Positions 41,963-58,384 of a DNA stretch of 64,000 bases are shown here, in pieces (within the stretch, counting starts at the first letter, position 1; the number at the start of each line of letters is the position of its first letter). Both the position numbers and the translations under genes were made by a program. Below the pieces are notes generated by a model, which saw only the letters and a list, made by a program, of their open reading frames with translations, made no database searches and was not told the DNA's origin. This stretch comes from Bacillota bacterium (GTDB lineage Bacteria > Bacillota > Sulfobacillia > Sulfobacillales > Sulfobacillaceae): positions 40,787 to 104,786 of the forward strand of contig JAKBWA010000062.1 in assembly GCA_021841025.1 (NCBI GenBank), written 5' to 3'.

Positions 41963-42948
41963 CGCGACACCCGAGACTGATTAAACCCTCCACTACACAA
42001 GATGTCACGCGCCTTGTAAAGGAAGCAGAGTCCAAAATATTTGGAGGCGGCACAGATTTGGTGCCGAACCGAACATGGGGGCTTGACACGTCGGGAACGT
42101 GGGTCCAACTCGGCACAGTGCCTGAAACGACCATGATTTCCATAGACGAAGAGGGACGCTGGTTAATCGGAGCAGCAGTGACTTTAGGGGTGATTTTGGA
42201 ACATCCTAAGATCTCGACACTTTATCCGTTGCTTGCCGACGCCATCCGGGCTGTGGCCACGCCTGAAATCCGCAATCAAGCGACTATCGGTGGCAATCTC
42301 TGTTTGGACACTCGCTGTCGGTTTCGCAACCAACCGCCGATTTGGCGCTCGGGTCTAAAACCGTGTTTTAAATCGGGAGGCGATCATTGTTATGCGGCAC
42401 CTGCGAGTTCCAGATGTGTGGCAATTGTGTCGTCGGATACGGCTCCTGCTCTCATTGCCCTGGGAGCACGGTTAAAAGTGCAGAGCACTAGCGGTTTTCG
42501 GTGGATTAAAACTTTGGATCTGTATAGCGGAGATGGTGATCGCCATTTGACCCTGGAACCAGGCGAGTGGATCGAGGCGATTCGTTTGCCAAATTTTCCG
42601 CCCTTGGGAGTGTTTGATAAATGGCGGATGCGAGGGAGCATTGATTTTCCCGAGGTCAACGTGGCCGTCAGCGTGACCCAGGCAAAGAATTCGCGAACGA
42701 TGCGTATCGTTTTGGGAGCCATGGGGCCTGAACCAGTTCGTCTTCGGGAGGCTGAAAAACTATTGGGTGAAGGACCGTGGGACCCAGAAAGACTCATGCA
42801 CGCAGTTCATACGGCGAGGGATGCTGTCCATCCTTATGACAATGGCCAAATAGGTGTAGTGGGGCGTAAAGGCGCAGCCGAGCACATCCTTTACCGTGCT
42901 CTTAAGAAGTTACGCATCATGATGGAGGAGAAGGGAGAAAACGCATGA
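41959..42948 (+). CDS. hcrB: 4-hydroxybenzoyl-CoA reductase, FAD/[4Fe-4S] subunit
   Basis: A 329-residue FAD-binding subunit (FGGGTDLVPN, TIGGNLCLDTRC). Unlike other xanthine oxidase relatives it has the extra loop with cysteines in CLDTRC, KPCFKSGGDHC and SSRCVAIVSSDTAPAL. In Thauera HcrB this loop binds an additional [4Fe-4S] cluster that allows electrons to flow from ferredoxin. This makes the 4-hydroxybenzoyl-CoA reductase call strong. The stop overlaps the start of the aconitase-family large subunit, linking the two systems in one operon. Confidence 0.9.
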   Translation: MTRHPRLIKPSTTQDVTRLVKEAESKIFGGGTDLVPNRTWGLDTSGTWVQLGTVPETTMISIDEEGRWLIGAAVTLGVILEHPKISTLYPLLADAIRAVATPEIRNQATIGGNLCLDTRCRFRNQPPIWRSGLKPCFKSGGDHCYAAPASSRCVAIVSSDTAPALIALGARLKVQSTSGFRWIKTLDLYSGDGDRHLTLEPGEWIEAIRLPNFPPLGVFDKWRMRGSIDFPEVNVAVSVTQAKNSRTMRIVLGAMGPEPVRLREAEKLLGEGPWDPERLMHAVHTARDAVHPYDNGQIGVVGRKGAAEHILYRALKKLRIMMEEKGENA

Positions 42949-44171
42949 CCTGGGCAGAAATGATATTGGCGCACAAAGCCAACCGAAACCAAGTTAGCGC
43001 GGGAGAGTATGTGGTTGCCCGACCCGATGCTTTGATGATGCATGATATTTTTGCTGCCGACGTTCTTGATCTTCTAGAAAAAAATGGAATAGAGCGGATT
43101 AACGATCCGGATCGTGTCAGCGTCGTATTTGATCACATGGTGCCGGCCCCGTCGGAATATGCCGCGGCGCATCAAAAAAAAGCCAGAGCATTGATTCGCA
43201 AATACGGTATTAAGCATTTTTTTGAAATAGGCCGGGGAATTTGTCACCAAGTCATGGTAGAAGAAAATTTGGTCAAACCGGGGGATTTAATTGTCGCCAC
43301 CGATTCCCATACGACGACCTATGGAGCCTTAGGGGCTGCCAGTGCCGGGATCGGGTCTACGGAGATGGCTTATGCACTGGCAACCGGAACTTTGTGGTTT
43401 AAGGTTCCCGAGACAGTATTAGTGTGGCTGGAGAGTCAATGGCAAGACAGTGTATGCGGCAAAGATCTGATTCTGTCGCTCATGCAGACGATTGGATCCG
43501 ACAAGGCCCAAAATCGCTCGTTGGAATTTCGTGGCCCAGGTGCGGCGGCAATGCCTGTAGCTGACAAATTGACTGTGGCCAACATGGGCGTGGAAATGGG
43601 GGCAAAATTCGCTCTCTTTCCTCCTAACGCGATGTCTCGGGGCAACGGTCCTTATTCTTTCGAGTTTTCCGTGGATCTTTCCCGGTTAGAACCTATGGTG
43701 GCGTTGCCCCATCATGTGGAAAATGTCGCCCGAATAGCTGATTACCAAGGACTTGAAATAGACCAAGTCTTTATTGGGTCATGCACCAATGGAAGAATTG
43801 AGGATTTGCGCGATGCTCAAAAAATTCTCCACGGACGGCATATTGCCCCTCATACACGGCTCATCGTGGCACCCGCGTCTCGTGAAATTTATCGGCAGGC
43901 TTTGCAAGAAGGAATCTTGGAGGATTTGATTCAGGCCGGTGCCATTATCGAAGGGCCGGGCTGCGGTCCTTGCTTTGGCGGACATATGGGGCTGCTCGCG
44001 GCAAACGAGCGCTGCCTTGGAACCCATAACCGGAACTTTCAAGGCCGTATGGGCAGTCTCGATGCCGAAATCTACCTCGCATCGCCTTTGAGTGCCGCTG
44101 CTACGGCGTTAACGGGGGTCGTGACTGATCCCCGAGATATTCTGGACTCTGGCGAGGAGGTGAATCAATGA
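42945..44171 (+). CDS. Aconitase-family hydro-lyase, large subunit (IPMD/dimethylmaleate hydratase-like)
   Basis: A 408-residue LeuC/homoaconitase-type subunit. [4Fe-4S] ligands are in FIGSCTNGRIEDL and GPGCGPCFGGH. Also seen are VFDHMVPAPSEYA, VATDSHTTTYGALG and GIGSTEMAYALATGTLWFKV. The family dehydrates and rehydrates 2- or 3-alkylmalates and related acids. It is coupled by four-base overlaps to hcrB before and the small subunit after, and no leuB is nearby, so leucine synthesis is unlikely. I propose 2-benzylmalate dehydration to benzylmaleate, by analogy with dimethylmaleate hydratase. The substrate is inferred. Confidence 0.8.
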   Translation: MTWAEMILAHKANRNQVSAGEYVVARPDALMMHDIFAADVLDLLEKNGIERINDPDRVSVVFDHMVPAPSEYAAAHQKKARALIRKYGIKHFFEIGRGICHQVMVEENLVKPGDLIVATDSHTTTYGALGAASAGIGSTEMAYALATGTLWFKVPETVLVWLESQWQDSVCGKDLILSLMQTIGSDKAQNRSLEFRGPGAAAMPVADKLTVANMGVEMGAKFALFPPNAMSRGNGPYSFEFSVDLSRLEPMVALPHHVENVARIADYQGLEIDQVFIGSCTNGRIEDLRDAQKILHGRHIAPHTRLIVAPASREIYRQALQEGILEDLIQAGAIIEGPGCGPCFGGHMGLLAANERCLGTHNRNFQGRMGSLDAEIYLASPLSAAATALTGVVTDPRDILDSGEEVNQ

Positions 44172-44740
44172 CACGCCTACCTTCTTTGCGCTATCAGGGC
44201 CGAGCATGGCTTCTAGGCGACAACATTTCTACTGATCTGCTCTCGCCGGGCCATTATGTTCACGATCCCCACGACGTTCGCCTCAAGCACGTATTGGAAG
44301 CCGTTCGTCCGGGTTTTGCCCAAGGAGTTAGAACGGGCGATATCGTGGTCGCCGGCAGGAACTTTGGCTGTGGATCCAGCCGGGAATCAGCTGCCATGCA
44401 TTTGAAGGATTTGGGTGTCGCTGCGGTTATTGCAGAATCTTTTGCCCGCATCTTTTCACGCAATGCGCTTGCCATCGGTCTTGCAGTCCTGAGTTGTCCA
44501 TCGATAAGCACAAGGGTGCAAGATGGCGAGCATATCATTGTCGATGTTGTGGCTGGCGAGGTTTTTCTGGCAGATGGCTCGCGTTTGGAATTGGAAAGAT
44601 TGCCCGATCAAATGTTGGAGGTGCTGGCTAAAGGCGGTATTGTGCCCATTCTCAAAGAGATCGGACGAACTCTGAGGGAAGGGAGAGATTTCGGTGTCAC
44701 GACGAACGATGAGACCGCTTCACGGAACGATATGAGATGA
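44168..44740 (+). CDS. Aconitase-family hydro-lyase, small subunit
   Basis: A 190-residue LeuD-like swivel domain. GRAWLLGDNISTDLLSPGHY and AGRNFGCGSSRESAAMHL are the hallmark segments. The loop that selects the substrate (usually YLRL in leucine enzymes) reads GHYVHDPHDV here, so a different substrate is likely. It forms the active enzyme with the preceding large subunit, whose stop it overlaps by four bases. Confidence 0.82.
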   Translation: MTRLPSLRYQGRAWLLGDNISTDLLSPGHYVHDPHDVRLKHVLEAVRPGFAQGVRTGDIVVAGRNFGCGSSRESAAMHLKDLGVAAVIAESFARIFSRNALAIGLAVLSCPSISTRVQDGEHIIVDVVAGEVFLADGSRLELERLPDQMLEVLAKGGIVPILKEIGRTLREGRDFGVTTNDETASRNDMR

Positions 44741-44756
44741 AATGGAGGGAATGAAA

Positions 44757-46046
44757 TTGGCAATGACTCAAGTAGACGAAGAACACTTTAGCCGTGATTT
44801 TTTGGCTGGCCAGGCTATAGGGGATTTTCAAGGTTTTATCAACCGCGTAAAGCAAGCCGTGCCATTTTATCAAGACAAGCTCTCGGGGATAGATCCCGAG
44901 TCCATTCGGGACGTGGATGACATTTCCCGTTTACCCTTCACTTACAAGGAGGATTTGCGTAAAGCCTATCCCTTTCAAATGCTGGGCGTGGATCTCTCTG
45001 ATGTTCAGGAAATTCATGCCACTTCGGGAACTAGCGGATCGGCCGTGGTCACAGCCTACACGGCAGGTGATTTGAAACTATGGAGCCAGGCCATGGCCCG
45101 GGTTTTTAGACGGGCTGGGGTCGGATCAGGAGATGTGGTGCATAACGCCTACGGTTACGGACTCTTTACCGGCGGTCTGGGAATGCATTATGCTGCCTTG
45201 GAGGTTGGTGCTGCCGTGGTGCCGATGTCAGGGGGCTATACGCAAAGACAGGTAAAGATGCTCAAGGATTTGGGTGCCACGGTCATTTGTTCGACTCCGT
45301 CTTATGCTCAACATATTGCCGAAGTCATGGCCGGTATGGGTATTTCCTCAGCTGATCTGAATCTGAAAGTCGGCATTTTCGGGGCCGAGTCATGGTCCCA
45401 GGAAATGTGCCGTGAACTCGAAACTCAACTAGGAATAAGTGCACTAGATGTATACGGGTTAGCCGAAATTATTGGCCCTGGTGTGGCCAGTGAATGTGTT
45501 CTTGGCCATGAAGGACTGCATGTCGCTGAAGATCTCTTTTATTTTGAGGTGATTAATCCAAACACTGGCCGTCCAGTTTCTGAAGGTGAAAGCGGAGAAC
45601 TGGTCTTGAGCTCACTCAAGCGCGAAGCCACGCCCATTATGCGCTACCGGACGGGAGATATCACACGCATTCTTCCAGACTCCTGCCCTTGCGGGCGCAC
45701 TACGCGCCGCATTGATCACATTAAAGGACGTGCCGACGATATGTTCACCTTACGCGGCATTAACTTGTTTCCCAGAGAAATCGAGTCGGAGCTTTTGCGT
45801 ATTGAAGAATTAGCCCCAGTGTTTCAGTTGGTTTTGGACCGGAATTCCGCGCTCGACATTTTAGAGGTGCATGTTGAGCCGAAAGACGGTGGCGTCAAGC
45901 ATGAACACTTGGTCCATAAGATCAAAACTCATTTGAACCGGACCTTGGGAATCAATGTGACGGTGGCTGTACAAGAACCGCACTCGATTCCCCGCAGCGA
46001 AGGCAAGGCTGTGCGTTTGGTGGATCGCAGGAAATTGATTCGGTAG
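44757..46046 (+). CDS. paaK: Phenylacetate-CoA ligase
   Basis: A protein of about 429 residues of the PaaK family: AVPFYQDKL, RLPFTYKEDLRKAYPFQMLG, the P-loop IHATSGTSGSAVVTAYT, VYGLAEIIGPGVASEC and the C-terminal RADDMFTLRGINLFPREIE. It makes phenylacetyl-CoA (or a hydroxylated form) from the acid, ATP and CoA. The conserved LPFT.K.DLR and the short C-terminus are typical. GGAGGGA suits TTG 44757; ATG 44763 or 44742 are alternatives. It follows the small subunit gene directly. Confidence 0.85.
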   Translation: MAMTQVDEEHFSRDFLAGQAIGDFQGFINRVKQAVPFYQDKLSGIDPESIRDVDDISRLPFTYKEDLRKAYPFQMLGVDLSDVQEIHATSGTSGSAVVTAYTAGDLKLWSQAMARVFRRAGVGSGDVVHNAYGYGLFTGGLGMHYAALEVGAAVVPMSGGYTQRQVKMLKDLGATVICSTPSYAQHIAEVMAGMGISSADLNLKVGIFGAESWSQEMCRELETQLGISALDVYGLAEIIGPGVASECVLGHEGLHVAEDLFYFEVINPNTGRPVSEGESGELVLSSLKREATPIMRYRTGDITRILPDSCPCGRTTRRIDHIKGRADDMFTLRGINLFPREIESELLRIEELAPVFQLVLDRNSALDILEVHVEPKDGGVKHEHLVHKIKTHLNRTLGINVTVAVQEPHSIPRSEGKAVRLVDRRKLIR

Positions 46047-46273
46047 GGACAATAGTAGGGAGAGGAAGGGGGAGTGGCAAAAGAGCTCAATGAGCGAAAT
46101 ATGGGATCTAGGGAACATACCCTTTGTTCTCTTTTCCCTAAGAGATGATGCAAAGGACTCAGGCAAACAAAGCAGATGTATTCTTGTGCGCTTCATGCGT
46201 GACAGATACGATCAACGTGATGCAGAAAGTGTCACGCAACGAACCTGACTAATTGTGAAAGGGGGAGTGTGTC
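46047..46273 (+). promoter_or_regulatory. Intergenic region with inverted repeat
   Basis: GCGTGACA (46197-46204) and TGTCACGC (46230-46237) form an 8-bp inverted repeat with a 25-base spacer, ending 36 bases before the synthase start. This is the first real gap inside the plus-strand series, so a second promoter with an operator may be here. Confidence 0.4.
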
Positions 46274-47518
46274 GTGAGCGAATCACTGTTGTACGACTGG
46301 AATCAAGTGGAGCCTTTAACAGTTGATTTTTCCGCCCCTAACGAATTGGAGCTAAACGATGAAACGTTGCGTGACGGACTGCAAAGTCCTTCGGTACGCC
46401 AACCTTCCTCAGACGAAAGAGCTGAATTTCTCCGTCTTTTGCCCCAACTGGGTATTCACGCTGCCAATATCGGTTATCCCGGTGCCAGTGAGAAGGCCTA
46501 TGAAGATGTAGTGCGATTGGCCCAAGTCATTTTGCATGAACATCTGAACATCGAGCCTAATTGTGCAGGCAGAACCCACTTAGCGGATTTGAATCCGATT
46601 CTCAAGGCATCCCAGGAAGCCGGTATCCGGATTGAAGCCGCTCTGTTTCTCGGTTCAAGCGCGATTCGTCAGTGGGTGGAGGGATGGGATCGATCGCAAC
46701 TGGTGCGTACGATCCGAGATAGCGTATCCACAGCCCATAAAGAAGGACTTCGTGTCATGTTTGTGACCGAGGATACCACTAGAGCCAGACCGGAAGATTT
46801 GGAAGCCATGTACTTAGCCGCTGCCGACGCCGGAGCCACACGCTTTTGTGTGGCGGATACCGTAGGGCATGCCACTCCCATTGGTACACAGCGGGTGGTA
46901 GGATTTGTGAAAAGCTGTCTCGATCAACGGGGATTCGATCCTATCATCGACTGGCATGGGCACCGTGATAGGGGACTTGACGTGATCAATGCTTTGGCAG
47001 CTCTTTCTGCGGGCGCCAGGCGGGTGCATGGATGTGCTCTGGGGATTGGGGAAAGAGTCGGCAATGCTCCCATGGATACGATTTTAGTCAACCTGGTTTT
47101 GTTGGGCTGGATGCAGCAGGACTTAACGAAACTACCCGTCTACTGCCAATTAACCTCGGCGATGACCCAAGTTGAGATTCCGAGAAATTATCCCGTAATG
47201 GGAGAAGATGCCTTTTGCACGAGTACGGGAGTCCATGCCGCGGCAATCGCCAAAGCCTATGCCAAAGGGGAGACGTGGCTTGCAGATCAGGTTTATAGCT
47301 CAGTTCCTGCCTCTTTGGTCGGCCGCCACCAGGAAATTTCGGTGGGACCCATGAGTGGGCGATCGAATGCCGAATTCTGGCTGAAGGATCATGGATTCGA
47401 CGCTACACCCGCTCGGATTGATGCGGTGATGAAGGCGGCAAAGACGACGCGCCAGATTCTCAGCACCGAGCAAATTCAGCACATATTGGGGCAATTGGAA
47501 ACACCCAAAGGAGCGTGA
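46274..47518 (+). CDS. DRE-TIM metallolyase, 2-isopropylmalate synthase-like (proposed 2-benzylmalate synthase)
   Basis: A 414-residue protein. NDETLRDGLQSPSVRQPS holds the catalytic Arg and metal Asp; DWHGHRDRGLDVINAL provides the HxH metal ligands; CALGIGERVGNAPMDTILVN is the acyl-CoA/oxoacid motif of isopropylmalate and homocitrate synthases. It lacks the C-terminal leucine-regulatory domain of LeuA. The family condenses acetyl-CoA with a 2-oxoacid. In this context the acceptor is proposed to be phenylpyruvate or 4-hydroxyphenylpyruvate. HMG-CoA lyase-type cleavage is less likely given the HxH and GER motifs. The GTG start follows GGGGGAG. Confidence 0.72.
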   Translation: MSESLLYDWNQVEPLTVDFSAPNELELNDETLRDGLQSPSVRQPSSDERAEFLRLLPQLGIHAANIGYPGASEKAYEDVVRLAQVILHEHLNIEPNCAGRTHLADLNPILKASQEAGIRIEAALFLGSSAIRQWVEGWDRSQLVRTIRDSVSTAHKEGLRVMFVTEDTTRARPEDLEAMYLAAADAGATRFCVADTVGHATPIGTQRVVGFVKSCLDQRGFDPIIDWHGHRDRGLDVINALAALSAGARRVHGCALGIGERVGNAPMDTILVNLVLLGWMQQDLTKLPVYCQLTSAMTQVEIPRNYPVMGEDAFCTSTGVHAAAIAKAYAKGETWLADQVYSSVPASLVGRHQEISVGPMSGRSNAEFWLKDHGFDATPARIDAVMKAAKTTRQILSTEQIQHILGQLETPKGA

Positions 47519-47589: not shown

Positions 47590-49374
47590 GTGGCGAGCGT
47601 GACCAAACCACGCCAATTGTTATTAGGCAATGAAGCAATGGCATGGGGCGCCGTAGATGCAGGCGTGCGTGTAGTAACAGGATATCCGGGAACTCCGAGC
47701 ACGGAAGCCTTGGAATATTTAGCGAAGATTGCTCCGGAAGATGTGGCGGTTCAGTGGGCGACCAATGAAAAAGTCGCTCTTGACGAGGCGATCGGGGCCG
47801 CATTGTCCGGAGCCAGAAGTCTGGTGACAATGAAGCATGTGGGATTAAATGTGGCGATGGATGCCTGGATGACCAGCCCCTTGGTAGGAGTCAATGCGGG
47901 ATTGGTGGTTTTGGTGGCCGATGATCCCGGGATGCACAGTTCGCAAAATGAACAAGACAGTCGATATTTGGGCAGATTTGCCGGCGTGCTGGTTTTTGAG
48001 CCATCTGACAGCCAAGAATGCTATCAGTTTGTGCACTCTGCTTTTGAAGCCAGCGAAAAGTGGGATTCCCCAGTCATGATCCGCACCACCACGCGTATAT
48101 CCCACTCAAGTTCCCCCGTGTCGCTAGGCGAAGCGGAGATCGGAACCGCTAAGGGGTTTCAGCGCAATCCCGGCAAATATGTGATGCTCCCAGTTTATGC
48201 CCGTGCCGGGCGGTTGCGTCATCTGGAAAGACTGCCCAAGATGGTCGAGTGGGTTGAATCTCATCCTTTCAATCAAGAAGAGATGAGATCGACGGAAATC
48301 GGGGTGATTGCCACGGGCACGGCCTACCAATACGTACGTGACGTGATACCCGAGGCCAGTGTACTGAAGCTGGGCATTACCAACCCTCTACCCGAAAATA
48401 TGATTCGAAACTTTGCTAGTAAAGTCAATCGGCTCATCGTGGTCGAAGAGTCGGAACCTTATCTCGAAGACACTATCAAAAGCCTGGGGATTATTGTAGA
48501 GGGCAAAACCTTCTTTCCTCGCGCGGGAGAGTTGTCCTCCCAGTCGGTTCGCATTGGGCTGCAAAAGGCAGGAGTTCTTCGCAACCCCTTGGAAGAGGCG
48601 AAGTACACTTGGCCAGGGCCCGTTCTAAGGCCCCCTTTGTTGTGTCCTGGCTGTCCTCACGTTACACCGTTTTTAGTATTGCGCGAGATTGGAGCCTATG
48701 TGAATGGTGATATTGGTTGCTACACCTTAGGGGCCTCAGAACCTCTTATGGCGATGGATACATGTTTGGCTATGGGTTCCAGCATTGGCATGGCGGTGGG
48801 CATGGCCAAAGCGGGGGTGAGGGACAAAGCGATTGTGGCGACAATTGGGGACTCCACCTTCTTGCATGGAGGGATCCCGGGCCTCATTGACGCAGTGTGG
48901 AACAATGCCGACATTTCAGTCATTATTCTGGACAATGGCACTACGGCTATGACTGGTGGGCAGCCTCATCCCGGGACAGCTCACAATGTTCGTGCGGCAA
49001 GTGTGCCGCGTATCGATATTGCCGAAGTGTGCCGTGCTGTGGGCGTAGAGCCCGTGGTTGTCGATCCTTATGATGTGGGAGCCACTCACCGCACTATTTT
49101 GGCGGCCACAAAAAAGCGCGGGGTGTCAGTGGTTATTACCAATCGTCCTTGTGTTCAGGCCCCGGAAAAGATATTCGGGAGAACTTATGAGGTGGAGTTG
49201 CAACGCTGTGACGGGTGTCAATTGTGCATGAATATCGGATGTCCAGCTCTGGGGTGGGATTTATCCTTCAACGATTTGCGGCGGGCCAGAATTGATTCCG
49301 ACCAATGTAGTGGCTGCACGGTTTGCGCACAATTATGTCCGCAATCAGCGATTGTGCCCATTATTCAAGACTAG
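47590..49374 (+). CDS. iorA: Indolepyruvate:ferredoxin oxidoreductase, alpha subunit
   Basis: A 594-residue subunit: an N-terminal pyrimidine domain (GNEAMAWGAVDAGVRVVTGY, PGTPSTEALE), a TPP-binding CPGCPHVTPF with IGDSTFLHGGIPGLIDAVWN, and a C-terminal ferredoxin segment with CDGCQLCMNIGCPALGW and CSGCTVCAQLCP. IorAB interconverts arylpyruvates and arylacetyl-CoA with ferredoxin. GAGGAGGG precedes the GTG. The beta subunit follows after 28 bases. Confidence 0.88.
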   Translation: MASVTKPRQLLLGNEAMAWGAVDAGVRVVTGYPGTPSTEALEYLAKIAPEDVAVQWATNEKVALDEAIGAALSGARSLVTMKHVGLNVAMDAWMTSPLVGVNAGLVVLVADDPGMHSSQNEQDSRYLGRFAGVLVFEPSDSQECYQFVHSAFEASEKWDSPVMIRTTTRISHSSSPVSLGEAEIGTAKGFQRNPGKYVMLPVYARAGRLRHLERLPKMVEWVESHPFNQEEMRSTEIGVIATGTAYQYVRDVIPEASVLKLGITNPLPENMIRNFASKVNRLIVVEESEPYLEDTIKSLGIIVEGKTFFPRAGELSSQSVRIGLQKAGVLRNPLEEAKYTWPGPVLRPPLLCPGCPHVTPFLVLREIGAYVNGDIGCYTLGASEPLMAMDTCLAMGSSIGMAVGMAKAGVRDKAIVATIGDSTFLHGGIPGLIDAVWNNADISVIILDNGTTAMTGGQPHPGTAHNVRAASVPRIDIAEVCRAVGVEPVVVDPYDVGATHRTILAATKKRGVSVVITNRPCVQAPEKIFGRTYEVELQRCDGCQLCMNIGCPALGWDLSFNDLRRARIDSDQCSGCTVCAQLCPQSAIVPIIQD

Positions 49375-49402
49375 GGGGCAGGGAGAGGAGGATGGCTGGA
49401 AT

Positions 49403-51411: not shown

Positions 51412-52241
51412 ATCCTGGCAAAGAACTTTTGCGTCAAGAAATGATGCCCCACATTCTCTGCCCGGGATGTGGACATGGGATTGTTCTGAATACTCTCGTG
51501 AGAGTGTTGGCCACCAGGTTTTCCTCGATGGATCAAGTGGCACTGGTTGCGGGTATTGGGTGCTCCAGCCGGATCGTGGGATACATAGACGCCTATACCT
51601 TGCATACCACGCATGGACGGGCGTTGTCATTTGCCACCGGTCTGAAGCTGTCTAGACCCGAATTAACCGTCATCGTGATTACCGGGGACGGAGACGGTTT
51701 GGGCATTGGAGGCAACCACTTGATTCATGCGGCCAGAAGAAATCTGGATTTGACTTGTATTTTGTTCAACAACGAAACGTACGGCATGACAGGCGGTCAA
51801 TTGGCTCCCACCACCGTGCCTCATGCGTTTACGACGACAACTCCTTATGGGAACAAAGAGCCGAGTTTTGATGCAGCGGCACTGCTCAAAGCTTGTGGGG
51901 CAACATTTGTTGCGCGAGGGCAGGCGTACCGGCCTGATTTGCTCGAGGAATTACTGAACCGGGCAATAGCCCACCGGGGTTTTTCCTTCGTGGACGTGAT
52001 GACGGATTGTACTGAGTATTTTGGCCGAAAAAATGCTTTGGGTGGGGGCTCTGATTTGTTATTCAGTCAGACCCGCGCCGATGAAGAAATCGCTCGGGAT
52101 CTGGACGAATGGCCGAGATTAAGACATCCGGATGGATTTCCCCTACGTGAAATACTGCCCATGGGAGTTTTGCATGAAGTGAGTCGTCCGACCTTGGAAG
52201 AAATGATGGGGTTGGCTGGTTATGAGGCAAGGGAGGAATAG
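51408..52241 (+). CDS. korB: 2-oxoacid:ferredoxin oxidoreductase, beta subunit
   Basis: A 277-residue TPP-binding subunit: MMPHILCPGCGHGIVLNTLV, GIGCSSRIVGY, and the TPP motif ITGDGDGLGIGGNHLIHAAR, followed by LFNNETYGMTGGQLAPTT. No extra ferredoxin domain is present; that role is likely filled by the domain fused to IorB. GTG 51408 overlaps the alpha stop and follows GGGGTGAGGG. Confidence 0.85.
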   Translation: MNPGKELLRQEMMPHILCPGCGHGIVLNTLVRVLATRFSSMDQVALVAGIGCSSRIVGYIDAYTLHTTHGRALSFATGLKLSRPELTVIVITGDGDGLGIGGNHLIHAARRNLDLTCILFNNETYGMTGGQLAPTTVPHAFTTTTPYGNKEPSFDAAALLKACGATFVARGQAYRPDLLEELLNRAIAHRGFSFVDVMTDCTEYFGRKNALGGGSDLLFSQTRADEEIARDLDEWPRLRHPDGFPLREILPMGVLHEVSRPTLEEMMGLAGYEAREE

Positions 52242-52243
52242 CT

Positions 52244-52810
52244 GTGTGGAAGAAGGAGATTCGTTTGGCAGGTTCCGGAGGCCAGGGGCTAGGGTTTGCT
52301 GCCATGGTCTTGGCCGATGCCGCGATCAAAGCAGGACTCCATGTCAGCACCTTGCAGTCGTACGGACCGGAGGCCCGGGGCGGTGCGAGTCGCTCCGACG
52401 TTACCTTAAGCGATGAAGACATTGCTAATCCTTGGTTTTCCAAACCCAGCGTTTTGCTCGCATTAAATGAGAAGGCATGGATAAAATATGGCCCCCAGTT
52501 GGGAGAAGAAGACTGGGTTTTGGTGGACAGCGACTGGGTAAATATCCCAGCGGGAAGGACAATCTTCCGGCTCCCCTTGGAACGAATCGCCAAAACCGAA
52601 CTGAGGGAAAAACTGACCACTAATATGGTGGCCGTGGGTGCTCTCGGAGCATTGGTAGGGCATATTCCCTTGTCCGCTTTGATGGAAGCGGCTCGGTTCC
52701 GAGCTCCCAAAGGATTTGGTGGTATCAACCAAGATGCTGTCAAGCGGGGTTGGGAGCTAATGGAGGATTTGCGGGGAGGTGTCAAAGATGCAAACGCCAG
52801 GGGTGCTTGA
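52244..52810 (+). CDS. korC: 2-oxoacid:ferredoxin oxidoreductase, gamma subunit
   Basis: A 188-residue gamma subunit: IRLAGSGGQGLGFAAMVLAD and LQSYGPEARGGASRSDVTLS, as in KorC/PorG. It completes the KorABC set. GGGAGGAAT precedes the GTG, and the end overlaps the CoA-transferase gene by 23 bases. Confidence 0.85.
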   Translation: MWKKEIRLAGSGGQGLGFAAMVLADAAIKAGLHVSTLQSYGPEARGGASRSDVTLSDEDIANPWFSKPSVLLALNEKAWIKYGPQLGEEDWVLVDSDWVNIPAGRTIFRLPLERIAKTELREKLTTNMVAVGALGALVGHIPLSALMEAARFRAPKGFGGINQDAVKRGWELMEDLRGGVKDANARGA

Positions 52811-54017
52811 TGGGATTAGAATTTTGGATGTGTCCCAGGGTGCCGCCGGGCCGACTGCCGGAATGGTGCTGGGAGAGTACGGAGCCAACGTAATTAAAGT
52901 GGACCCCCCGCAAGGCGAGTGGGGCAGACGGCTGGGTCCTCCCTTTCTCGGTGAAGATGCAGCGGCGTACATTGGTATGAACCGGAACAAACGTTCTATC
53001 GTCATTAATTTGAAAACGGAAAGGGGTTTGGACGTATTCAAAACTCTTGCGGCAAGAAGCGACGTGGTGCTAGAGAGCTTTCGCCCTGGAGTCATGGATC
53101 GACTGGGTATTGGTTATGCTGGTCTTTCGCATCATCATCCGGATTTGATTTATTGTGCGATTTCAGCCTTTGGGACCACAGGTCCCTGGCGCGACAAGCC
53201 TGGAGTTGACGGCATTATTCAAGCAATGAGCGGACTGATGAGTGTGACTGGGGAGCCAGACGGGCAGCCAGTGAAAGTGGGGGTTCCTGCCGCCGATATG
53301 ACGGCGGCTTTAATCGCTGTTCAAGGTATTTTGCTGGCCCTATTGGCACGTATGACAACCGGAAAAGGGCAGCGAATCGACGTTTCTCTTTTGCAAAGTT
53401 TGTTCTTTTTTCAAACGGTGCCTTGGTCCATGTTCATGGTAAGCGGGCGATCCCCAGGTCGACAGGGAAGCGCCGCTCCTTATTCGGCACCCAACGAAGT
53501 CTATCCCACCAAAGACGGCTTTCTGATGGTCGCGGCCTATTGGCCGCAGAGGTGGACCAAACTGACTCAGTTGCTGGAATGTGAGGAACTTGCCGCCGAC
53601 CCGAGGTTTTGTGGGATAAGCGAGCGGGTGATTCACCGTGCAGAACTTTTTGACTTGCTTGCGGAAAAGTTTCGGAGGCGGAACACCGAGGAATGGCTCG
53701 ACATTTTAGGCAAAGAGGATATTTTGTGTGCACCCGTCATGGACTACGACCAATTGGCCAAATTAGCGCATGTCATGACGCCTGAGAACTTTCCTCGTCT
53801 GGAGCATCCGGATTTGGGAATGACACCTGGGGTAGGAATGCCGACACAACTACAGGACATGCCGTCCGAGCCCCGACGCCCAGCGCCGTTAACGGGAGAG
53901 CATACCCGGGAGATCTTGGAAGAGGGGGGATATTCTGCGGGTGCCATCGATGAATTGATTGAACAAGGTGCTGTGGGGGAAAGGTCTCGGATTTTAGCTA
54001 AAGATCTTGAAGAGTAG
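52788..54017 (+). CDS. Class III CoA-transferase (CaiB/BaiF family, BbsE/F-like)
   Basis: A 409-residue family III CoA-transferase. LDGIRILDVSQGAAGPTAGM, IKVDPPQGEWGRRLGPPFLG, YIGMNRNKRSIVINLKTERG and MSVTGEPDGQPVKVGVPAAD show the fold; the Asp of the last segment is the usual CoA-thioester-forming residue. BbsEF of the toluene pathway uses succinyl-CoA to activate benzylsuccinate. Here a single gene is followed by hydratase, SDR, DUF35 and thiolase in Bbs order. I infer that phenylitaconate is the acid activated. ATG 52788 follows GGGGAG. Confidence 0.82.
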   Translation: MQTPGVLDGIRILDVSQGAAGPTAGMVLGEYGANVIKVDPPQGEWGRRLGPPFLGEDAAAYIGMNRNKRSIVINLKTERGLDVFKTLAARSDVVLESFRPGVMDRLGIGYAGLSHHHPDLIYCAISAFGTTGPWRDKPGVDGIIQAMSGLMSVTGEPDGQPVKVGVPAADMTAALIAVQGILLALLARMTTGKGQRIDVSLLQSLFFFQTVPWSMFMVSGRSPGRQGSAAPYSAPNEVYPTKDGFLMVAAYWPQRWTKLTQLLECEELAADPRFCGISERVIHRAELFDLLAEKFRRRNTEEWLDILGKEDILCAPVMDYDQLAKLAHVMTPENFPRLEHPDLGMTPGVGMPTQLQDMPSEPRRPAPLTGEHTREILEEGGYSAGAIDELIEQGAVGERSRILAKDLEE

Positions 54018-54037: not shown

Positions 54038-54820
54038 GTGGAGCAGTTCCTGCAACGAGAGAATCTGGACGGTGTAGTCCGAATTCGGATCAACCGGGAA
54101 TCAGCCTTAAACGCCATGACCCCAGAAATGTTGAAGGATTTGCGGGCGATGCTGGGAGAGCTTGAGGACGATCCGAATGTCCGGGTCATTATTCTAGCGG
54201 GTCAGAAAAGAGCCTTTTCAGTGGGCGCCGATATCAAAGGAAGGGTAGCCGAATATGATACTGGGACCATCAAGGACCCATTGGGGGAAATTATTCGTGA
54301 CTTGTTCGCCTTCATTGAGGATCTCACCAAACCGGTTATCGCCGCTTTATCTGGATATGTTCTCGGGGGTGGTCTGGAATTGGCTTTGGCCGCAGATGTT
54401 CGTATGGCGGATACGACGGCTAAATTGGGATTTCCTGAAGCCAATGTGGGGAGTTTGCCAGGCGCGGGCGGCACGCAAAGGTTGCCTCGGATTGTCGGAC
54501 CCAGCCGAGCTATGGCTTTAATGTTTACCGCAGAGCGCATTGATGCCCGCCAGGCATTGGCATGGGGACTCGTGGACCGGGTTGTGGAAGAAGGGACACT
54601 CGACGAAGAGAGTCTCAACTGGGCTCAGCTTATGGCTAAAAAGGCTCCATTGTCTCTGGCTTACATCAAGAAGCTGGTGCATCTGGCATCCAATACCGAT
54701 ATTGAGACCGGTATGGCTTTTGAAGCGTCATGCCATGCCATTTTGCGAAATTCCAAAGATCGAGAAGAAGGGATGAGAGCCTTTGTAGAAAAACGTCCAC
54801 CTCACTTTATCGGACAATGA
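54038..54820 (+). CDS. Enoyl-CoA hydratase (BbsH-like)
   Basis: A 260-residue crotonase: INRESALNAMTPEMLKDLRA, KRAFSVGADIKGR (oxyanion loop), GYVLGGGLELALAADVRMAD and KLGFPEANVGSLPGAGGTQR. The first catalytic Glu (FPEAN) is present. The second Glu position of classical hydratases appears to be Ala or Met-Ala, as in some specialised members. In the proposed route it hydrates phenylitaconyl-CoA to the alpha-hydroxybenzyl-succinyl-CoA. GGAGGGGAG precedes the GTG. Confidence 0.82.
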   Translation: MEQFLQRENLDGVVRIRINRESALNAMTPEMLKDLRAMLGELEDDPNVRVIILAGQKRAFSVGADIKGRVAEYDTGTIKDPLGEIIRDLFAFIEDLTKPVIAALSGYVLGGGLELALAADVRMADTTAKLGFPEANVGSLPGAGGTQRLPRIVGPSRAMALMFTAERIDARQALAWGLVDRVVEEGTLDEESLNWAQLMAKKAPLSLAYIKKLVHLASNTDIETGMAFEASCHAILRNSKDREEGMRAFVEKRPPHFIGQ

Positions 54821-54849
54821 GGAAAACATGGGTAAGGAGTTGATAAGAG

Positions 54850-55599: not shown

Positions 55600-55644
55600 A
55601 GTCATTCGATAACGAAAGATTCCCTACGGGAAGGAGTGAAGAAT

Positions 55645-56064
55645 ATGGCACAGATTGAACAAAGACCTAAGGGTCCGGATCGTTACGAAGTCGATGGGGA
55701 GAATATCTACTTGCTGGGAAGCCAATGTAGCGCGTGCGGTGCCGTGTTTTATCCTGAACAAACTGTTTGTGGCCGCTGTGCTCACCGAGGTTCTAAGAGC
55801 TTACGACTGGGACCTGAAGGTGTGCTTTATACCTGGACCCGAATCCATCAGTCAACGTCCGAGTTTCAGACGCCTTATATGCTAGGGTATGTGGATTTTC
55901 CGCAAAACGTGCGAGTATTGGTGCCTTTGGTCGAGAATGTCGAACCCACAATGGGTATGGTCCTCAAGCTGGTTTTGGCAACCGGGCCAAAGATGGCCCC
56001 AGGTGGAGAACCCTTTGAATTGGTTCATGGGGCACCAATTGTAGGGGAGGAGAGACAAGCATGA
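55645..56064 (+). CDS. DUF35 zinc-ribbon/OB-fold thiolase partner (BbsA-like)
   Basis: A 139-residue protein with a rubredoxin-like zinc ribbon (GSQCSACGAVFYPEQTVCGR, then CAHRG) and an OB fold (GPEGVLYTWTRIHQS, FPQNVRVLVPLVEN). In the toluene pathway BbsA of this family forms a complex with the thiolase BbsB and is needed for benzoylsuccinyl-CoA cleavage. Steroid aldolases use similar partners. GGAAGGAG precedes ATG 55645, and the stop overlaps the thiolase start by four bases. Confidence 0.85.
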   Translation: MAQIEQRPKGPDRYEVDGENIYLLGSQCSACGAVFYPEQTVCGRCAHRGSKSLRLGPEGVLYTWTRIHQSTSEFQTPYMLGYVDFPQNVRVLVPLVENVEPTMGMVLKLVLATGPKMAPGGEPFELVHGAPIVGEERQA

Positions 56065-57203
56065 ACGATGTTTATGTGATTGGTGTGGGGATGACGGCTT
56101 TTGGAAAGCATCCTGACCGTACGGCAGCCGACCTGGCTGCAGAGGCGATTTTGGGCGCATTGGACGACGCCGGAATAAAAACTGCGGACATTGAAGCAGC
56201 CTGGGTTGGGCACGTTTATCAAGGAATGGCCATGGGTCAAAGAGGTCTTGGGGCGGCCGGCATGTCGGGACTGCCTATAACTAACGTAGAGAATGCTTGC
56301 AGCAGTGGTTCCACAGCAATTTTTCATGCGGCTACGGCACTTAAGGCGGGGATTTACGACGTAGTACTAGCTTGCGGGGTTGAGTTGTTATCGACTCGGT
56401 TTCGCGGAGCACTTGCCCCAGATGAGAGCGACATTGAAGCCCAAATCGGATTGACTATGCCGGCGGTTTATGCCATGCGAGCGCGTCGGCACATGGAACA
56501 ATATGGCACAACACCCAGGATGCTTGCGGCGATTGCATCCAAAAACAAATTCAACGCCAGCCTCAATCCCCTGGCCCAGTTCAAAAAACCGGTTTCGGTC
56601 GACGAAGTGCTGGCCGGGCGCATGATAGCTGACCCGCTGCATTTGCACGAATGCGCCCCTGTTTCTGACGGGGCCGCCGCCGTGGTGTTGATCAGTGCAA
56701 GGAAACTTCATCAATTGGACTCATCCCGGGCTGTGAGACTCGCGGCATCGGAACTGCGCAGCGGCAAACTTGAAGTGGGCTTGCCTGATATGACGATTGA
56801 AGACTTGACTTGGAGGACCGCTGAGGCTGCATATCAGCAGGCAGGCCTAGGACCCGAAGATGTGGACATGGCGGAAGTGCATGACTGTTTCAGCATTGCC
56901 GAGGCCACCCGTGTTGAAGGGTTGAAACTTTATCCGCGTGGAGAGTATCCGGCGCGGGTGGCACGGGGAGAAGCCAATATCGACGGACGTTTACCTGTCA
57001 ATATGAGCGGAGGTCTTTTGGGCAAAGGGCATCCCTTGGGAGCCACGGGGGTGGCGCAGGTGATAGAAATTGTTAAGCAATTGCGTCATGAGGCCAATGA
57101 CAGGCAAGTTGAAGGAGCCAAAGTGGGTCTGGCTCATTGTCGGGGAGGGAAGGCTCGGGGAGTGGAAGGAACGGCTTGCACCGTCAATATACTGACACTG
57201 TAA
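56061..57203 (+). CDS. Thiolase, SCP2/BbsB-like
   Basis: A 380-residue thiolase of the lipid-transfer (SCP2) type. The nucleophile is Cys80 in VENACSSGSTAIFHAATAL; other active-site parts are EVHDCFSIAEA and GLLGKGHPLGATGVAQVIE, then GLAHCRGGKARG. The Cys distinguishes it from Ltp2-type aldolases, which lack it. Paired with the DUF35 protein it matches BbsAB, which cleaves benzoylsuccinyl-CoA to benzoyl-CoA and succinyl-CoA. Acting on 3-oxopimelyl-CoA is an alternative. Confidence 0.83.
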   Translation: MNDVYVIGVGMTAFGKHPDRTAADLAAEAILGALDDAGIKTADIEAAWVGHVYQGMAMGQRGLGAAGMSGLPITNVENACSSGSTAIFHAATALKAGIYDVVLACGVELLSTRFRGALAPDESDIEAQIGLTMPAVYAMRARRHMEQYGTTPRMLAAIASKNKFNASLNPLAQFKKPVSVDEVLAGRMIADPLHLHECAPVSDGAAAVVLISARKLHQLDSSRAVRLAASELRSGKLEVGLPDMTIEDLTWRTAEAAYQQAGLGPEDVDMAEVHDCFSIAEATRVEGLKLYPRGEYPARVARGEANIDGRLPVNMSGGLLGKGHPLGATGVAQVIEIVKQLRHEANDRQVEGAKVGLAHCRGGKARGVEGTACTVNILTL

Positions 57204-57217
57204 GTGAGGCGAGCAGG

Positions 57218-58384
57218 ATGGATAGGCAAACGCAAATGACAGCATCCTTGGGCAGTGATGAACTCATCCCCGTGCGCTGTACACTGATGCGAGGAGGTAC
57301 CAGCAAGGCGGTTTTTTTGCCAGCCGAAGTGGTACCTGCATTGGAATCTGACCGCGAACGGTTCCTGTTGGCGCTCATGGGCAGTCCCGATCCGCGTCAG
57401 ATTGATGGATTGGGCGGTGCCGATCTCTTGACGACGAAGGTGGCGATTATCGGAACACCTACTCGGGAAGACGCAGATTTGGATTACACTTTTGCCCAAG
57501 TGTCTGTGAGTCGTCCTGAGGTATACTTCGACATGAATTGTGGGAATATTTCTTCGGCAGTAGGAGTTTATGCTTTGGAGCAAGGTCTTATCCGAGCCCA
57601 AGAACCCCTCACCCGTATCCGCATTCATAATCGCAATACACATACCATCCTCTTAAGCGATGTGCCCGTCAAAGAAAATCATGCCGTGGTAGAGGGAGAC
57701 TTTCAGATCGACGGTGTGCCGGGAACCGGAGCAGCGGTGAAAATGGACTATCATCTCACTCAAGGGGGAGCTACGGGATCGCTCTTGCCCACCGGCCGCG
57801 CCCAGGACATCATCACGGTCGAAGGATGGGGCGAAGTCAGAATCTCGGTAGTTGACATTGCCAACCTAGGCTTTATGGTCGCAGCCGAAGATGTCGGTTT
57901 GGATCCCTCTAAGGTTCCAACGGGGCCAGATCAGGAATTGTTGCATAAAATGGACACTATTCAAAGGACTGTGGCCCGCAATCTGGGAATGGCTGAGGGG
58001 CAGTTGACACCCATTCCCGTTATTGTATCTCCCCCGCATGATTTTGCCACTGTGGTGGGAGATGTTGTCGTAGGTGCTCAGGACGTGGACATTGTCTCGG
58101 AGGTGATAGGGGGACAGCCGCTTACGCTTCATAAGGCATTTCCCGGAACCACCAGCGTGACACTGGCAGTGGCGGCTAAAATTCCGGGAACCATCGCTTA
58201 CGAAGTGGCACGAAAAGAGGATACGCACAGAGTTCGGATAGGACATCCTAGCGGTCGGATGGAGGTTGGCGTGCATGTCGCGCCCCTTTCTGACGGCACT
58301 GTAGTTGTGAAGGAGGCCTCGTATTATCGGACGGCCCGTTTGCTTATGGACGGCGTCACGTATGTAAGGCGTGCCAGGCTTTAA
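57218..58384 (+). CDS. PrpF/methylitaconate delta-isomerase-family isomerase
   Basis: A 388-residue protein of the PrpF family (diaminopimelate epimerase-like fold). It shows VRCTLMRGGTSKAVFLPAE, GLGGADLLTTKVAIIG with Lys74, VYFDMNCGNISSAVGVYALE with Cys108, and IGHPSGRMEVGV; Lys and Cys are the expected proton-transfer pair. Relatives move double bonds in 2-methylaconitate, oxalomesaconate, or methylitaconate/dimethylmaleate (Mii). Here it is proposed to turn benzylmaleate into phenylitaconate. The start is ATG 57218, because upstream codons overlap the thiolase. Confidence 0.83.
   Translation: MDRQTQMTASLGSDELIPVRCTLMRGGTSKAVFLPAEVVPALESDRERFLLALMGSPDPRQIDGLGGADLLTTKVAIIGTPTREDADLDYTFAQVSVSRPEVYFDMNCGNISSAVGVYALEQGLIRAQEPLTRIRIHNRNTHTILLSDVPVKENHAVVEGDFQIDGVPGTGAAVKMDYHLTQGGATGSLLPTGRAQDIITVEGWGEVRISVVDIANLGFMVAAEDVGLDPSKVPTGPDQELLHKMDTIQRTVARNLGMAEGQLTPIPVIVSPPHDFATVVGDVVVGAQDVDIVSEVIGGQPLTLHKAFPGTTSVTLAVAAKIPGTIAYEVARKEDTHRVRIGHPSGRMEVGVHVAPLSDGTVVVKEASYYRTARLLMDGVTYVRRARL

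What the first reader, a model, noticed from the sequence alone, without database searches (positions are those of the whole stretch)
42945..58384. Predicted new route from arylpyruvates to benzoyl-CoA via benzylmalate and phenylitaconate
Seen in sequence: one plus-strand series encodes an isopropylmalate-synthase-like enzyme, an aconitase-family hydro-lyase with an altered small-subunit loop, a PrpF/Mii-type allylic isomerase, a class III CoA transferase, enoyl-CoA hydratase, SDR, DUF35 and thiolase. Established: isopropylmalate synthases add acetyl-CoA to 2-oxoacids; in Eubacterium barkeri nicotinate fermentation an aconitase-family enzyme (dimethylmaleate hydratase) and Mii act back to back on dimethylmaleate and methylitaconate; in toluene breakdown Bbs enzymes convert E-phenylitaconyl-CoA to benzoyl-CoA plus succinyl-CoA. 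Inference: phenylpyruvate + acetyl-CoA gives benzylmalate, then benzylmaleate, then phenylitaconate, then phenylitaconyl-CoA (CoA from succinyl-CoA), hydroxy- and oxo-intermediates, then benzoyl-CoA + succinyl-CoA. Every step has one gene, in one series, and no gene for a competing use (leuB, bssA, bbsG) is there.
Basis: partly seen in the sequence, partly recalled or inferred. Interest (0 to 1): 0.95.

Follow-up and report, generated by a model that had tools for sequence, protein, structure and literature searches.

The report
Chain-lengthening route from arylacetates to benzoyl-CoA
A Sulfobacillus-type genome and 14 other bacterial genomes, some only distantly related, share a gene cluster, mostly in genomes that also carry benzoyl-CoA reductase genes, that is predicted to break down phenylacetate-type aromatic acids without oxygen by first lengthening their side chain with acetyl-CoA and then cutting it off as succinyl-CoA.

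Summary
The gene series is real. Just upstream lie 4-hydroxybenzoyl-CoA reductase genes (hcrB overlaps acnL by ATGA), a PaaX-type regulator and a full class I benzoyl-CoA reductase set.

The core order is kept in 13 further loci. Of 15 cluster genomes, 15 have the PrpF-like gene, 15 an HcrB relative and 13 BcrB. An orphan synthase homologue in Pyrinomonas comes without PrpF or BcrB. The genome has its own LeuA, LeuC and citramalate synthase, so the leucine reading fails. Best solved-structure matches are Mii for the PrpF-like protein, BbsD for the SDR, and BbsB, in a tie, for the thiolase.

No activity was measured. Eight literature searches on the route or its parts did not find it (open-access library only).

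The parts
23544..24314 (+). dch-like enoyl-CoA hydratase family gene (benzoyl-CoA central pathway)
   Evidence: Pfam ECH; dienoyl-CoA hydratase model is sixth best, 117 bits vs cut-off 292
24360..25304 (+). oah/badI-like ring-opening hydrolase gene
   Evidence: best NCBIfam models badI 192 bits and dearomat_oah 179 bits, both below cut-off
25301..26326 (+). had, 6-hydroxycyclohex-1-ene-1-carbonyl-CoA dehydrogenase-like
   Evidence: best model TIGR03201, 264 bits vs cut-off 339
26362..27546 (+). bcrC, benzoyl-CoA reductase subunit C-like
   Evidence: best model TIGR02263, 304 bits vs cut-off 421
27600..28892 (+). bcrB, benzoyl-CoA reductase subunit B-like
   Evidence: best model TIGR02260, 320 bits vs cut-off 487
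28889..30581 (+). two BcrA/BcrD-type ATPase subunit genes (28889-29728, 29742-30581)
   Evidence: Pfam BcrAD_BadFG 233 and 192 bits; pass the general activase model TIGR00241
33006..33830 (-). PaaX-family regulator
   Evidence: Pfam PaaX and PaaX_C; only NCBIfam match TIGR02277 PaaX, 167 bits vs cut-off 265; kept in L027 and L029
39153..42948 (+). hcrC-hcrA-hcrB, 4-hydroxybenzoyl-CoA reductase-like
   Evidence: hcrA and hcrB best models are 4-hydroxybenzoyl-CoA reductase (721 and 218 bits, below cut-offs; hcrC best is XdhC); hcrB best solved match 1rm6, 164 vs 75 bits; four-Cys loop; ATGA overlaps
42945..44740 (+). acnL-acnS, aconitase-family hydro-lyase (predicted benzylmalate dehydratase)
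   Evidence: Pfam; large subunit passes three LeuC/homoaconitase subfamily models, small subunit passes LeuD/DmdB TIGR02087; loop Y-V-H-[D/A]-P in 11 of 11 rows
44742..46046 (+). PaaK-like arylacetate-CoA ligase
   Evidence: best model TIGR02155 PaaK, 487 bits vs cut-off 646
46274..47518 (+). HMGL-family synthase (predicted benzylmalate synthase)
   Evidence: Pfam HMGL; no curated model passed, best 183 vs 517; pocket residues A98, M162, V164, C192, H252 invariant in 26 rows
47590..50278 (+). iorA-iorB, indolepyruvate:ferredoxin oxidoreductase
   Evidence: IorA passes TIGR03336 (658 vs 650.9); IorB best models are IOR beta, below cut-off
50263..52810 (+). porA-porB-porG, 2-oxoacid:ferredoxin oxidoreductase of KorAB type
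   Evidence: porA passes PRK08659 (505 vs 411); porB best model is 2-oxoglutarate type, 256 vs 364
52779..54017 (+). class III CoA transferase (predicted succinyl-CoA:arylitaconate CoA transferase)
   Evidence: Pfam; best models and solved matches are succinate-linked dicarboxylate CoA transferases
54038..54820 (+). enoyl-CoA hydratase (predicted arylitaconyl-CoA hydratase)
   Evidence: Pfam ECH_1 219 bits
54850..55599 (+). SDR dehydrogenase
   Evidence: best solved match BbsD 7pcs, 237 vs 208 bits for the next
55636..57203 (+). DUF35 protein and SCP2-type thiolase (BbsA/BbsB-like pair)
   Evidence: DUF35: best model BbsA, 57 vs cut-off 250; thiolase: best solved match BbsB 7pxp, 246.1, tied with an SCP2 thiolase, 245.7
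57218..58384 (+). PrpF/Mii-family isomerase (predicted benzylmaleate/phenylitaconate isomerase)
   Evidence: best solved match methylitaconate isomerase 3g7k, 280 bits vs PrpF 190
58488..61641 (+). MFS transporter and benzoate-CoA-ligase-family enzyme
   Evidence: Pfam; ligase passes TIGR02262 (528 vs 375); both kept in G002 and G006

Best explanation
The cluster is predicted to encode an oxygen-independent route that would turn phenylacetate and 4-hydroxyphenylacetate, by way of the arylpyruvate, an arylmethylmalate and an arylitaconate, into benzoyl-CoA for the benzoyl-CoA reductase whose genes lie just upstream. Steps, all inferred from family and context: (1) the PaaK-like ligase makes arylacetyl-CoA; (2) IorAB, running in reverse, carboxylates it to arylpyruvate with reduced ferredoxin, likely supplied by the KorAB-like enzyme, which could also serve the two ring reductases; arylpyruvate from Phe or Tyr would enter here too; (3) the HMGL enzyme adds acetyl-CoA to give 2-benzylmalate (eucomate for the 4-hydroxy form); (4) AcnLS removes water to benzylmaleate; (5) the Mii-like enzyme shifts the double bond to phenylitaconate, so the toluene-type sequence is entered at the unsaturated level and needs no BbsG; (6) the CoA transferase takes CoA from succinyl-CoA; (7) hydratase, SDR and DUF35-thiolase give aryl-CoA + succinyl-CoA; (8) HCR turns 4-hydroxybenzoyl-CoA into benzoyl-CoA and BCR takes over. 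If succinate returns through the citric acid cycle to acetyl-CoA and CO2, the net effect is arylacetate to aryl-CoA + CO2. Shown here: families, order, conservation, co-occurrence. Not shown: any activity, the direction of IorAB, expression.
For: Order kept in 13 further loci. PrpF-like gene in 15 of 15 cluster genomes and not in the Pyrinomonas orphan; HcrB relative in 15 of 15 and in 0 of 5 cluster-less genomes tested; BcrB in 13 of 15 (class table 6/2/1/145, Fisher p 1.2e-8, kinship not corrected). Synthase or PrpF-like gene on the same contig as bcrB in six genomes: G000, G002, G006, G088, G158, G163. hcrB-acnL ATGA overlap. Best solved matches: Mii, BbsD, BbsB in a tie, 4-hydroxybenzoyl-CoA reductase beta. 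Own LeuA, LeuC and CimA elsewhere. PaaK-like ligase, IorA over cut-off, PaaX-family regulator; no PaaA/PaaC match in the window's own genome. Synthase pocket lacks the homocitrate and isopropylmalate synthase letters and shares the small residue A of HphA.
Against: No activity data. Only one of five HphA pocket letters is shared, the mapping is mine, and all five letters also occur in the Pyrinomonas homologue without the cluster. Thiolase is tied with an SCP2 thiolase; DUF35 is slightly closer to an archaeal thiolase partner than to BbsA; the CoA transferase is closer to succinate--HMG CoA transferase than to BbsEF; SDR and CoA transferase are single genes where toluene degraders have pairs. 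G008 (97% complete) has the cluster but no BcrB or BcrA/D match; G014 has bcr without the synthase. The ligase is missing between acnS and the synthase in L040-L043, and no acn pair lies within the 10 kb held upstream in L039 and L045. PaaX was found only in the two closest relatives. Reverse IorAB costs reduced ferredoxin. Four other cluster genomes also carry aerobic phenylacetyl-CoA genes. A PadB-type enzyme in this genome was not excluded.
Confidence: 0.57

Rival explanations
1. Same core route, but free arylpyruvate from Phe/Tyr is the entry; IorAB works oxidatively on part of it to make reduced ferredoxin and the ligase only recycles arylacetate.
For: IorAB is known in the oxidative direction for arylpyruvates (PMC5109826 section 9; PMC13285125 passages); the ligase is not between acnS and the synthase in L040-L043.
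Against: It would send arylpyruvate to an arylacetyl-CoA with no PaaA/PaaC outlet in this genome; no aminotransferase in the series; PaaK-like ligase directly upstream of the synthase in the window and 7 further loci (L038 cut by the contig end); PaaX-type regulator.
Confidence: 0.22
2. The same reaction sequence acts on another 2-oxoacid side chain (aliphatic or heterocyclic), and its neighbourhood to bcr genes only reflects shared regulation of acyl-CoA breakdown.
For: Relatives of the PrpF-like protein and the thiolase appear to be co-located in Armatimonadota and Acidimicrobiia (equal contig lengths); the synthase subfamily occurs without the cluster in Pyrinomonas.
Against: HcrB relative in 15 of 15 and BcrB in 13 of 15 cluster genomes; IorA over its cut-off; hcrB-acnL overlap.
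Confidence: 0.1
3. Arylacetyl-CoA is the acyl donor: condensed with oxaloacetate it gives an arylcitrate, isomerised as in the methylcitrate cycle and cleaved to phenylglyoxylate, which PorABG converts to benzoyl-CoA.
For: Uses ligase, IorAB, synthase, AcnLS, PrpF-like enzyme and PorABG.
Against: No PrpB-type lyase among the genes of the series scanned; it leaves CoA transferase, hydratase, SDR, DUF35 and thiolase without a role; porA scores 505 bits on a general 2-oxoacid model but 83 on the phenylglyoxylate PadG model; the isomerase is Mii-like rather than PrpF-like.
Confidence: 0.04
4. The synthase and hydro-lyase are this genome's leucine, citramalate or lysine enzymes.
For: Family membership of synthase and hydro-lyase.
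Against: Separate LeuA (650 vs 598.7), CimA (627 vs 450) and LeuC (763 vs 560) over their cut-offs in the same genome; the cluster synthase passes none of these models; 146 of 154 class genomes lack it at E <= 1e-80.
Confidence: 0.02

Closest known systems
Bbs pathway of anaerobic toluene degradation (bbsABCDEFGH)
   Same: CoA transfer from succinyl-CoA, hydratase, SDR and DUF35-thiolase giving benzoyl-CoA + succinyl-CoA (sequence of steps: PMC5874301 passages); SDR best matches BbsD, thiolase best matches BbsB in a tie
   Different: No benzylsuccinate synthase and no BbsG; predicted entry at phenylitaconate; single-gene CoA transferase and SDR; three further front-end enzymes
HphA benzylmalate synthase and homophenylalanine/homotyrosine pathway
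   Same: Predicted condensation of an arylpyruvate with acetyl-CoA by an isopropylmalate-synthase relative; Ala at the position the paper singles out (PMC12961565, abstract and section 16)
   Different: Catabolic setting; no leuB-type dehydrogenase; the other four pocket positions differ; HphA sequence itself not compared
Dimethylmaleate hydratase and methylitaconate isomerase (DmdAB, Mii) of nicotinate fermentation
   Different: Predicted substrates carry a benzyl in place of methyl groups; predicted direction is from the hydroxy acid to the itaconate
Pad pathway (phenylacetate to benzoyl-CoA, PadJ, PadBCD, PadEFGHI)
   Same: Arylacetate to benzoyl-CoA without oxygen, starting with a CoA ligase (PMC5109826 section 9)
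   Different: No PadEFGHI-like scores in the series; predicted chain lengthening instead of alpha-oxidation, so the arylacetate carboxyl carbon should appear in succinate first
Aryl acid assimilation by reverse indolepyruvate oxidoreductase (methanogens; recalled)
   Same: Arylacetate to arylacetyl-CoA to arylpyruvate
   Different: There it serves amino acid synthesis; here predicted for breakdown

Membership tests
Bbs pathway | Thiolase of SCP2 type with DUF35 partner gene (BbsAB) | tested here: met
   Adjacent genes; thiolase top match BbsB, tied; DUF35 best NCBIfam model BbsA, below cut-off
Bbs pathway | Two-gene SDR (BbsCD) and two-gene CoA transferase (BbsEF) | tested here: not met
   One SDR and one class III CoA transferase gene in the series
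Bbs pathway | BbsG acyl-CoA dehydrogenase and bssA | tested here: not met
   Not among the series; no ORF of that size unassigned inside the span in 13 loci
Benzylmalate synthase (HphA type) | HMGL-type barrel without LeuA regulatory domain | tested here: met
   414 aa, HMGL 25-283; model matches 6ktq and other synthases
Benzylmalate synthase (HphA type) | Five substrate-pocket letters A, D, A, M, S | tested here: inconclusive
   A, M, V, C, H by motif mapping: one of five shared, none of the isopropylmalate set, one (H) of the homocitrate set
Benzylmalate synthase (HphA type) | Activity with arylpyruvate and acetyl-CoA | not testable with these tools
   Needs enzyme assay
PrpF/Mii isomerases | PrpF-family protein with the Lys and Cys motifs of Mii (roles recalled) | tested here: met
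   Pfam PrpF 311 bits; Mii best match; LTTK/LTSK in all 8 rows; NCGN in 5 and LCGN or LCG in 2 of 7 rows with residues there
Isopropylmalate isomerase / DmdAB | LeuC-type large and LeuD/DmdB-type small subunit | tested here: met
   Pass subfamily models NF001614, TIGR01343, TIGR02086 and TIGR02087
4-Hydroxybenzoyl-CoA reductase | Extra four-Cys cluster loop in the beta subunit | tested here: met
   Aligned with 1rm6; four Cys in the window and in 6 of 6 other rows with residues there
4-Hydroxybenzoyl-CoA reductase | Curated equivalog scores | tested here: not met
   All three subunits below the cut-offs; a divergent member or a close relative
Class I benzoyl-CoA reductase | BcrC, BcrB and two ATPase-type subunits in one array | tested here: met
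   Window 26362-30581; equivalog cut-offs not reached
Indolepyruvate ferredoxin oxidoreductase | IorA equivalog score with an IorB partner | tested here: met
   658 vs 650.9 for IorA; IorB below its cut-offs; direction of reaction not testable
Phenylglyoxylate oxidoreductase (PadEFGHI) | PadG, PadI, PadE equivalog scores | tested here: not met
   83 vs 700, 37 vs 700, 39 vs 300 bits

The most novel reading that the evidence does not exclude
An acetyl-CoA-primed catalytic cycle for arylacetate breakdown: a ligase and a reverse-running indolepyruvate oxidoreductase make arylpyruvate; a dedicated benzylmalate synthase, a hydro-lyase and a Mii-type isomerase turn it into phenylitaconate; a toluene-type module splits off aryl-CoA and succinyl-CoA; and succinate regenerates the acetyl-CoA and CO2. 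It would be a further oxygen-independent way from arylacetate to benzoyl-CoA, shared by Bacillota and Actinomycetes, that lengthens a side chain in order to remove it.
Probability: 0.5. Interest if true: 0.93.

Novelty: new variant of a known kind. Interest (0 to 1): 0.86.

Why it matters
If true, a biosynthetic trick (chain extension of the leucine or homophenylalanine type) serves to degrade an aromatic side chain, and four known modules (Hph-like, Dmd/Mii-like, Bbs-like, HCR/BCR) are joined into one route. It makes a stated gap testable: Desulfococcus multivorans, and by the same account D. toluolica, make benzoyl-CoA from phenylacetate and phenylpyruvate without PadB or PadEFGHI while forming a ligase, a dehydrogenase, a hydratase, a thiolase and IorAB; the authors assign these to phenylglyoxylate formation and call its further conversion unclear (PMC5109826 section 9). 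Whether those bacteria have the synthase and isomerase was not checked. It would also give Sulfobacillus-type bacteria, known mainly from acid and ore settings (recalled), an aromatic breakdown route of anaerobic type.

Tried and rejected
Leucine, citramalate or lysine synthesis: rejected on separate LeuA, LeuC and CimA. Phenylcitrate cycle with arylacetyl-CoA as donor: rejected, no lyase gene in the series and five genes left idle. Arylacetyl-CoA + pyruvate on the dimethylmalate pattern: worked through on paper; the aryl-bearing carbon keeps a carboxyl, so benzoyl-CoA does not come out. PadEFGHI role for PorABG: models score far below. PadB in the genome: inconclusive; of nine molybdopterin-family matches four were scanned, and L079 and L080 stay unassigned. 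Pyrinomonas context: no cluster gene by tblastn, and the ten ORFs scanned there are unrelated. Tree of the synthase: one subfamily of 29 rows apart from LeuA and CimA (100/100), but the 15 cluster-linked rows do not form one clade; 13 P rows and Pyrinomonas fall among them, and the context of the P rows was not examined. Regulators: PaaX found only in L027 and L029 among the 99 loci then held. Literature: ten searches; the first eight bore on the route or its parts and listed no paper on it, judged from listings; two searches sought background. The library is open access only, so absence in print is not shown.

Full report
WHAT IS THERE. The series extends both ways. Upstream are hcrC-hcrA-hcrB (39153-42948); hcrB ends in the ATGA that starts acnL, and the same kind of overlap joins hcrC/hcrA, hcrA/hcrB and acnL/acnS. 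Downstream are an MFS transporter and a benzoate-CoA-ligase-family enzyme, 58488-61641. Further upstream, 22905-30581, lie a TetR regulator and the central benzoyl-CoA genes: dch-like, oah/badI-like, had, bcrC, bcrB and two ATPase-type subunits. Between the blocks are a PaaX-family regulator (33006-33830), a ligase with an aromatic-acid-type transporter (34038-37177), a PAS-LuxR regulator and a hemerythrin (37399-38907). The bcr block ends 8.6 kb before hcrC.

WHERE IT COMES FROM. The window is a stretch of a 3.4-Mb draft genome in 118 contigs.

CONSERVATION. The synthase was sought in 41 genomes (own and relatives) and in 154 genomes of the class: 8 of 154 have it at E <= 1e-80. A scan of species genomes gave 13 loci, two of which are G002 and G006 again. 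Counting each genome once and leaving out the Pyrinomonas orphan there are 15 'cluster genomes': G000, G002, G006, G007, G008, G080, G083, G088 and G157-G163. One of them, G162, is known only from a 3.6-kb contig with synthase and iorA (L044). In 13 loci besides the window the order synthase, iorA, iorB, porA, porB, porG, CoA transferase is the same (L028, L030-L032, L036-L043, L045); L039 has an extra TetR-like ORF before the CoA transferase. After the CoA transferase, 10 of 10 loci that reach further continue with hydratase, SDR, DUF35 and thiolase, and 7 of 7 that go beyond the thiolase have the PrpF-like gene next. The hydro-lyase pair is upstream in 10 loci; it is not within the 10 kb held upstream in L039 and L045, and L038 and L044 are too short to tell. 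The PaaK-like gene is directly upstream of the synthase in 7 further loci (in L038 cut by the contig end), about 6 kb upstream at 48% identity in L040, and not between acnS and synthase in L040-L043. In the 13 loci screened no unassigned ORF above 230 aa lies inside the conserved span.

CO-OCCURRENCE. BcrB at E <= 1e-80 is in 7 of the same 154 genomes, 6 of them synthase genomes (Fisher p = 1.2e-8, kinship not corrected). In the genomes of the public loci BcrB is in 10 of 11, missing only in Pyrinomonas; three of those 11 repeat class genomes. Over the 15 distinct cluster genomes BcrB is in 13. The misses are G007 (61% complete) and G008 (97% complete); G008 has no BcrA/D-family match either, so it is a true exception or an assembly gap. 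G014 has bcr without the synthase. The Actinomycetes-type BcrB proteins are 38-42% identical to the window's; the three tested score best as BcrB, below cut-off, and bcrC-B-A-D arrays surround all seven. HcrB relatives are in 15 of 15 cluster genomes and 0 of 5 cluster-less genomes tested; Pyrinomonas also has three HcrB-family matches that I did not classify. In G158, G159, G160, G161 and G163 the HcrB relative lies about 4 to 11 kb from bcrB. The PrpF-like gene is in 15 of 15 cluster genomes and not in Pyrinomonas (E <= 1e-30). Synthase or PrpF-like gene and bcrB share a contig in six genomes: G000, G002, G006, G088, G158, G163.

THE ENZYMES. Synthase: its best curated model reaches 183 bits against a cut-off of 517. 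Closest solved relatives are homocitrate synthase (128 bits) and isopropylmalate synthases (about 94), and structure search agrees (model pLDDT 80.8). A paper on HphA, the benzylmalate synthase of the homo-amino-acid pathway, lists five pocket positions (PMC12961565, abstract and section 16). Mapped by motif, the cluster synthase reads A98, M162, V164, C192, H252; HphA reads A, D, A, M, S; isopropylmalate synthase L, E, S, N, E; homocitrate synthase H, R, T, S, H. It lacks the Arg and the Leu/Glu/Asn signature of the primary enzymes and shares the small residue that the paper singles out, but only that one. The mapping is mine; the HphA sequence was not fetched, and the automatic alignment leaves gaps at the first position. 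All five are invariant in 26 rows, lie on barrel strands of the model and are also unchanged in Pyrinomonas, which weakens any inference from pocket to substrate.

Hydro-lyase: LeuD/DmdB-family small subunit with a Y-V-H-[D/A]-P loop in 11 of 11 rows, where solved relatives read Y-L-V-Y, Y-N-L-T and Y-L-R-T. Isomerase: Mii 280 bits, PrpF 190, 4-oxalomesaconate isomerase and YbhH 174-180; the NCBIfam ranking differs, with 4-oxalomesaconate tautomerase (288 vs cut-off 440) ahead of PrpF (205 vs 441) and no Mii model listed. SDR: BbsD 237 against 208. Thiolase: BbsB 246.1 and an SCP2 thiolase 245.7; among NCBIfam models BbsB is fourth. DUF35: archaeal thiolase partner 43.9, BbsA 40.0. CoA transferase: succinate--HMG enzyme first, Bbs subunits at 147 and 133 bits. 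HcrB: 4-hydroxybenzoyl-CoA reductase beta 164 against 75 bits, with the four Cys of its extra cluster.

NOT LEUCINE SYNTHESIS. Elsewhere the genome has LeuA, citramalate synthase and LeuC, each over its curated cut-off. The LeuA gene follows an open frame that I read by eye as ketol-acid reductoisomerase.

HOW IT MOST LIKELY WORKS. That explains why no BbsG is needed. The ligase is PaaK-like, the regulator PaaX-like, IorA is over the cut-off of the arylpyruvate/arylacetyl-CoA enzyme, and the genome has no PaaA/PaaC match. Arylacetyl-CoA would then have no known outlet unless IorAB runs towards arylpyruvate, as in aryl acid assimilation of methanogens (recalled); a PadB-type outlet was not excluded. 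The second oxidoreductase is KorAB-like, and in Thauera KorAB supplies electrons to benzoyl-CoA reductase (PMC9973337, passages). Of 11 cluster genomes given, G000, G002 and G008 have no PaaA/PaaC match, G006, G154, G156 and G163 have strong ones, and G157, G158, G160 and G161 only weak ones, so in some hosts the cluster may serve low-oxygen conditions beside an aerobic route.

SHOWN AND INFERRED. Shown: sequences, family scores, order, conservation, co-occurrence, motifs. Inferred: every substrate, product, the direction of IorAB, electron donors, inducer. My odds: core route about 0.75 to 0.8, arylacetate entry about 0.57.

NOVELTY. Eight open-access searches on the route or its parts listed no paper describing it; the benzylmalate papers were seen as listings only, apart from PMC12961565. 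I call it a new variant because each module is known while the joining is not.

Noticed in passing
window 33006-33830: PaaX-family regulator between the bcr and hcr blocks, kept in L027 and L029, although this genome has no PaaA/PaaC match.
   Followed up: partly
window 37399-38907: PAS-LuxR regulator and hemerythrin divergent from hcrC; LuxR relatives also in L027, L029, L036, L040 and L098, hemerythrin relatives in L027, L029, L033 and L036. May link the cluster to oxygen.
   Followed up: partly
proteins P0189-P0238 (PrpF) and P0273-P0358 (thiolase): More distant PrpF-like (48-53%) and thiolase (63-68%) relatives, some named Armatimonadota or Acidimicrobiia, share eight identical 'longest contig' lengths in the two tables, so the pair is probably co-located well beyond the synthase set; a wider module with other side chains is possible.
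   Followed up: no
G008 (L032, L033): Whole cluster with hcr but no BcrB or BcrA/D match in a 97% complete genome.
   Followed up: partly
L046: Pyrinomonas methylaliphatogenes carries a 51% synthase homologue with the same five pocket residues, beside peptidase and phosphotransacylase genes and without PrpF or BcrB in the genome; its function is unknown.
   Followed up: partly
window 12110-13753: Formate--tetrahydrofolate ligase gene.
   Followed up: no
L028:13526-14563: In G006 an extra 346-aa ORF lies between the MFS transporter and the benzoate-CoA-ligase-family gene.
   Followed up: no
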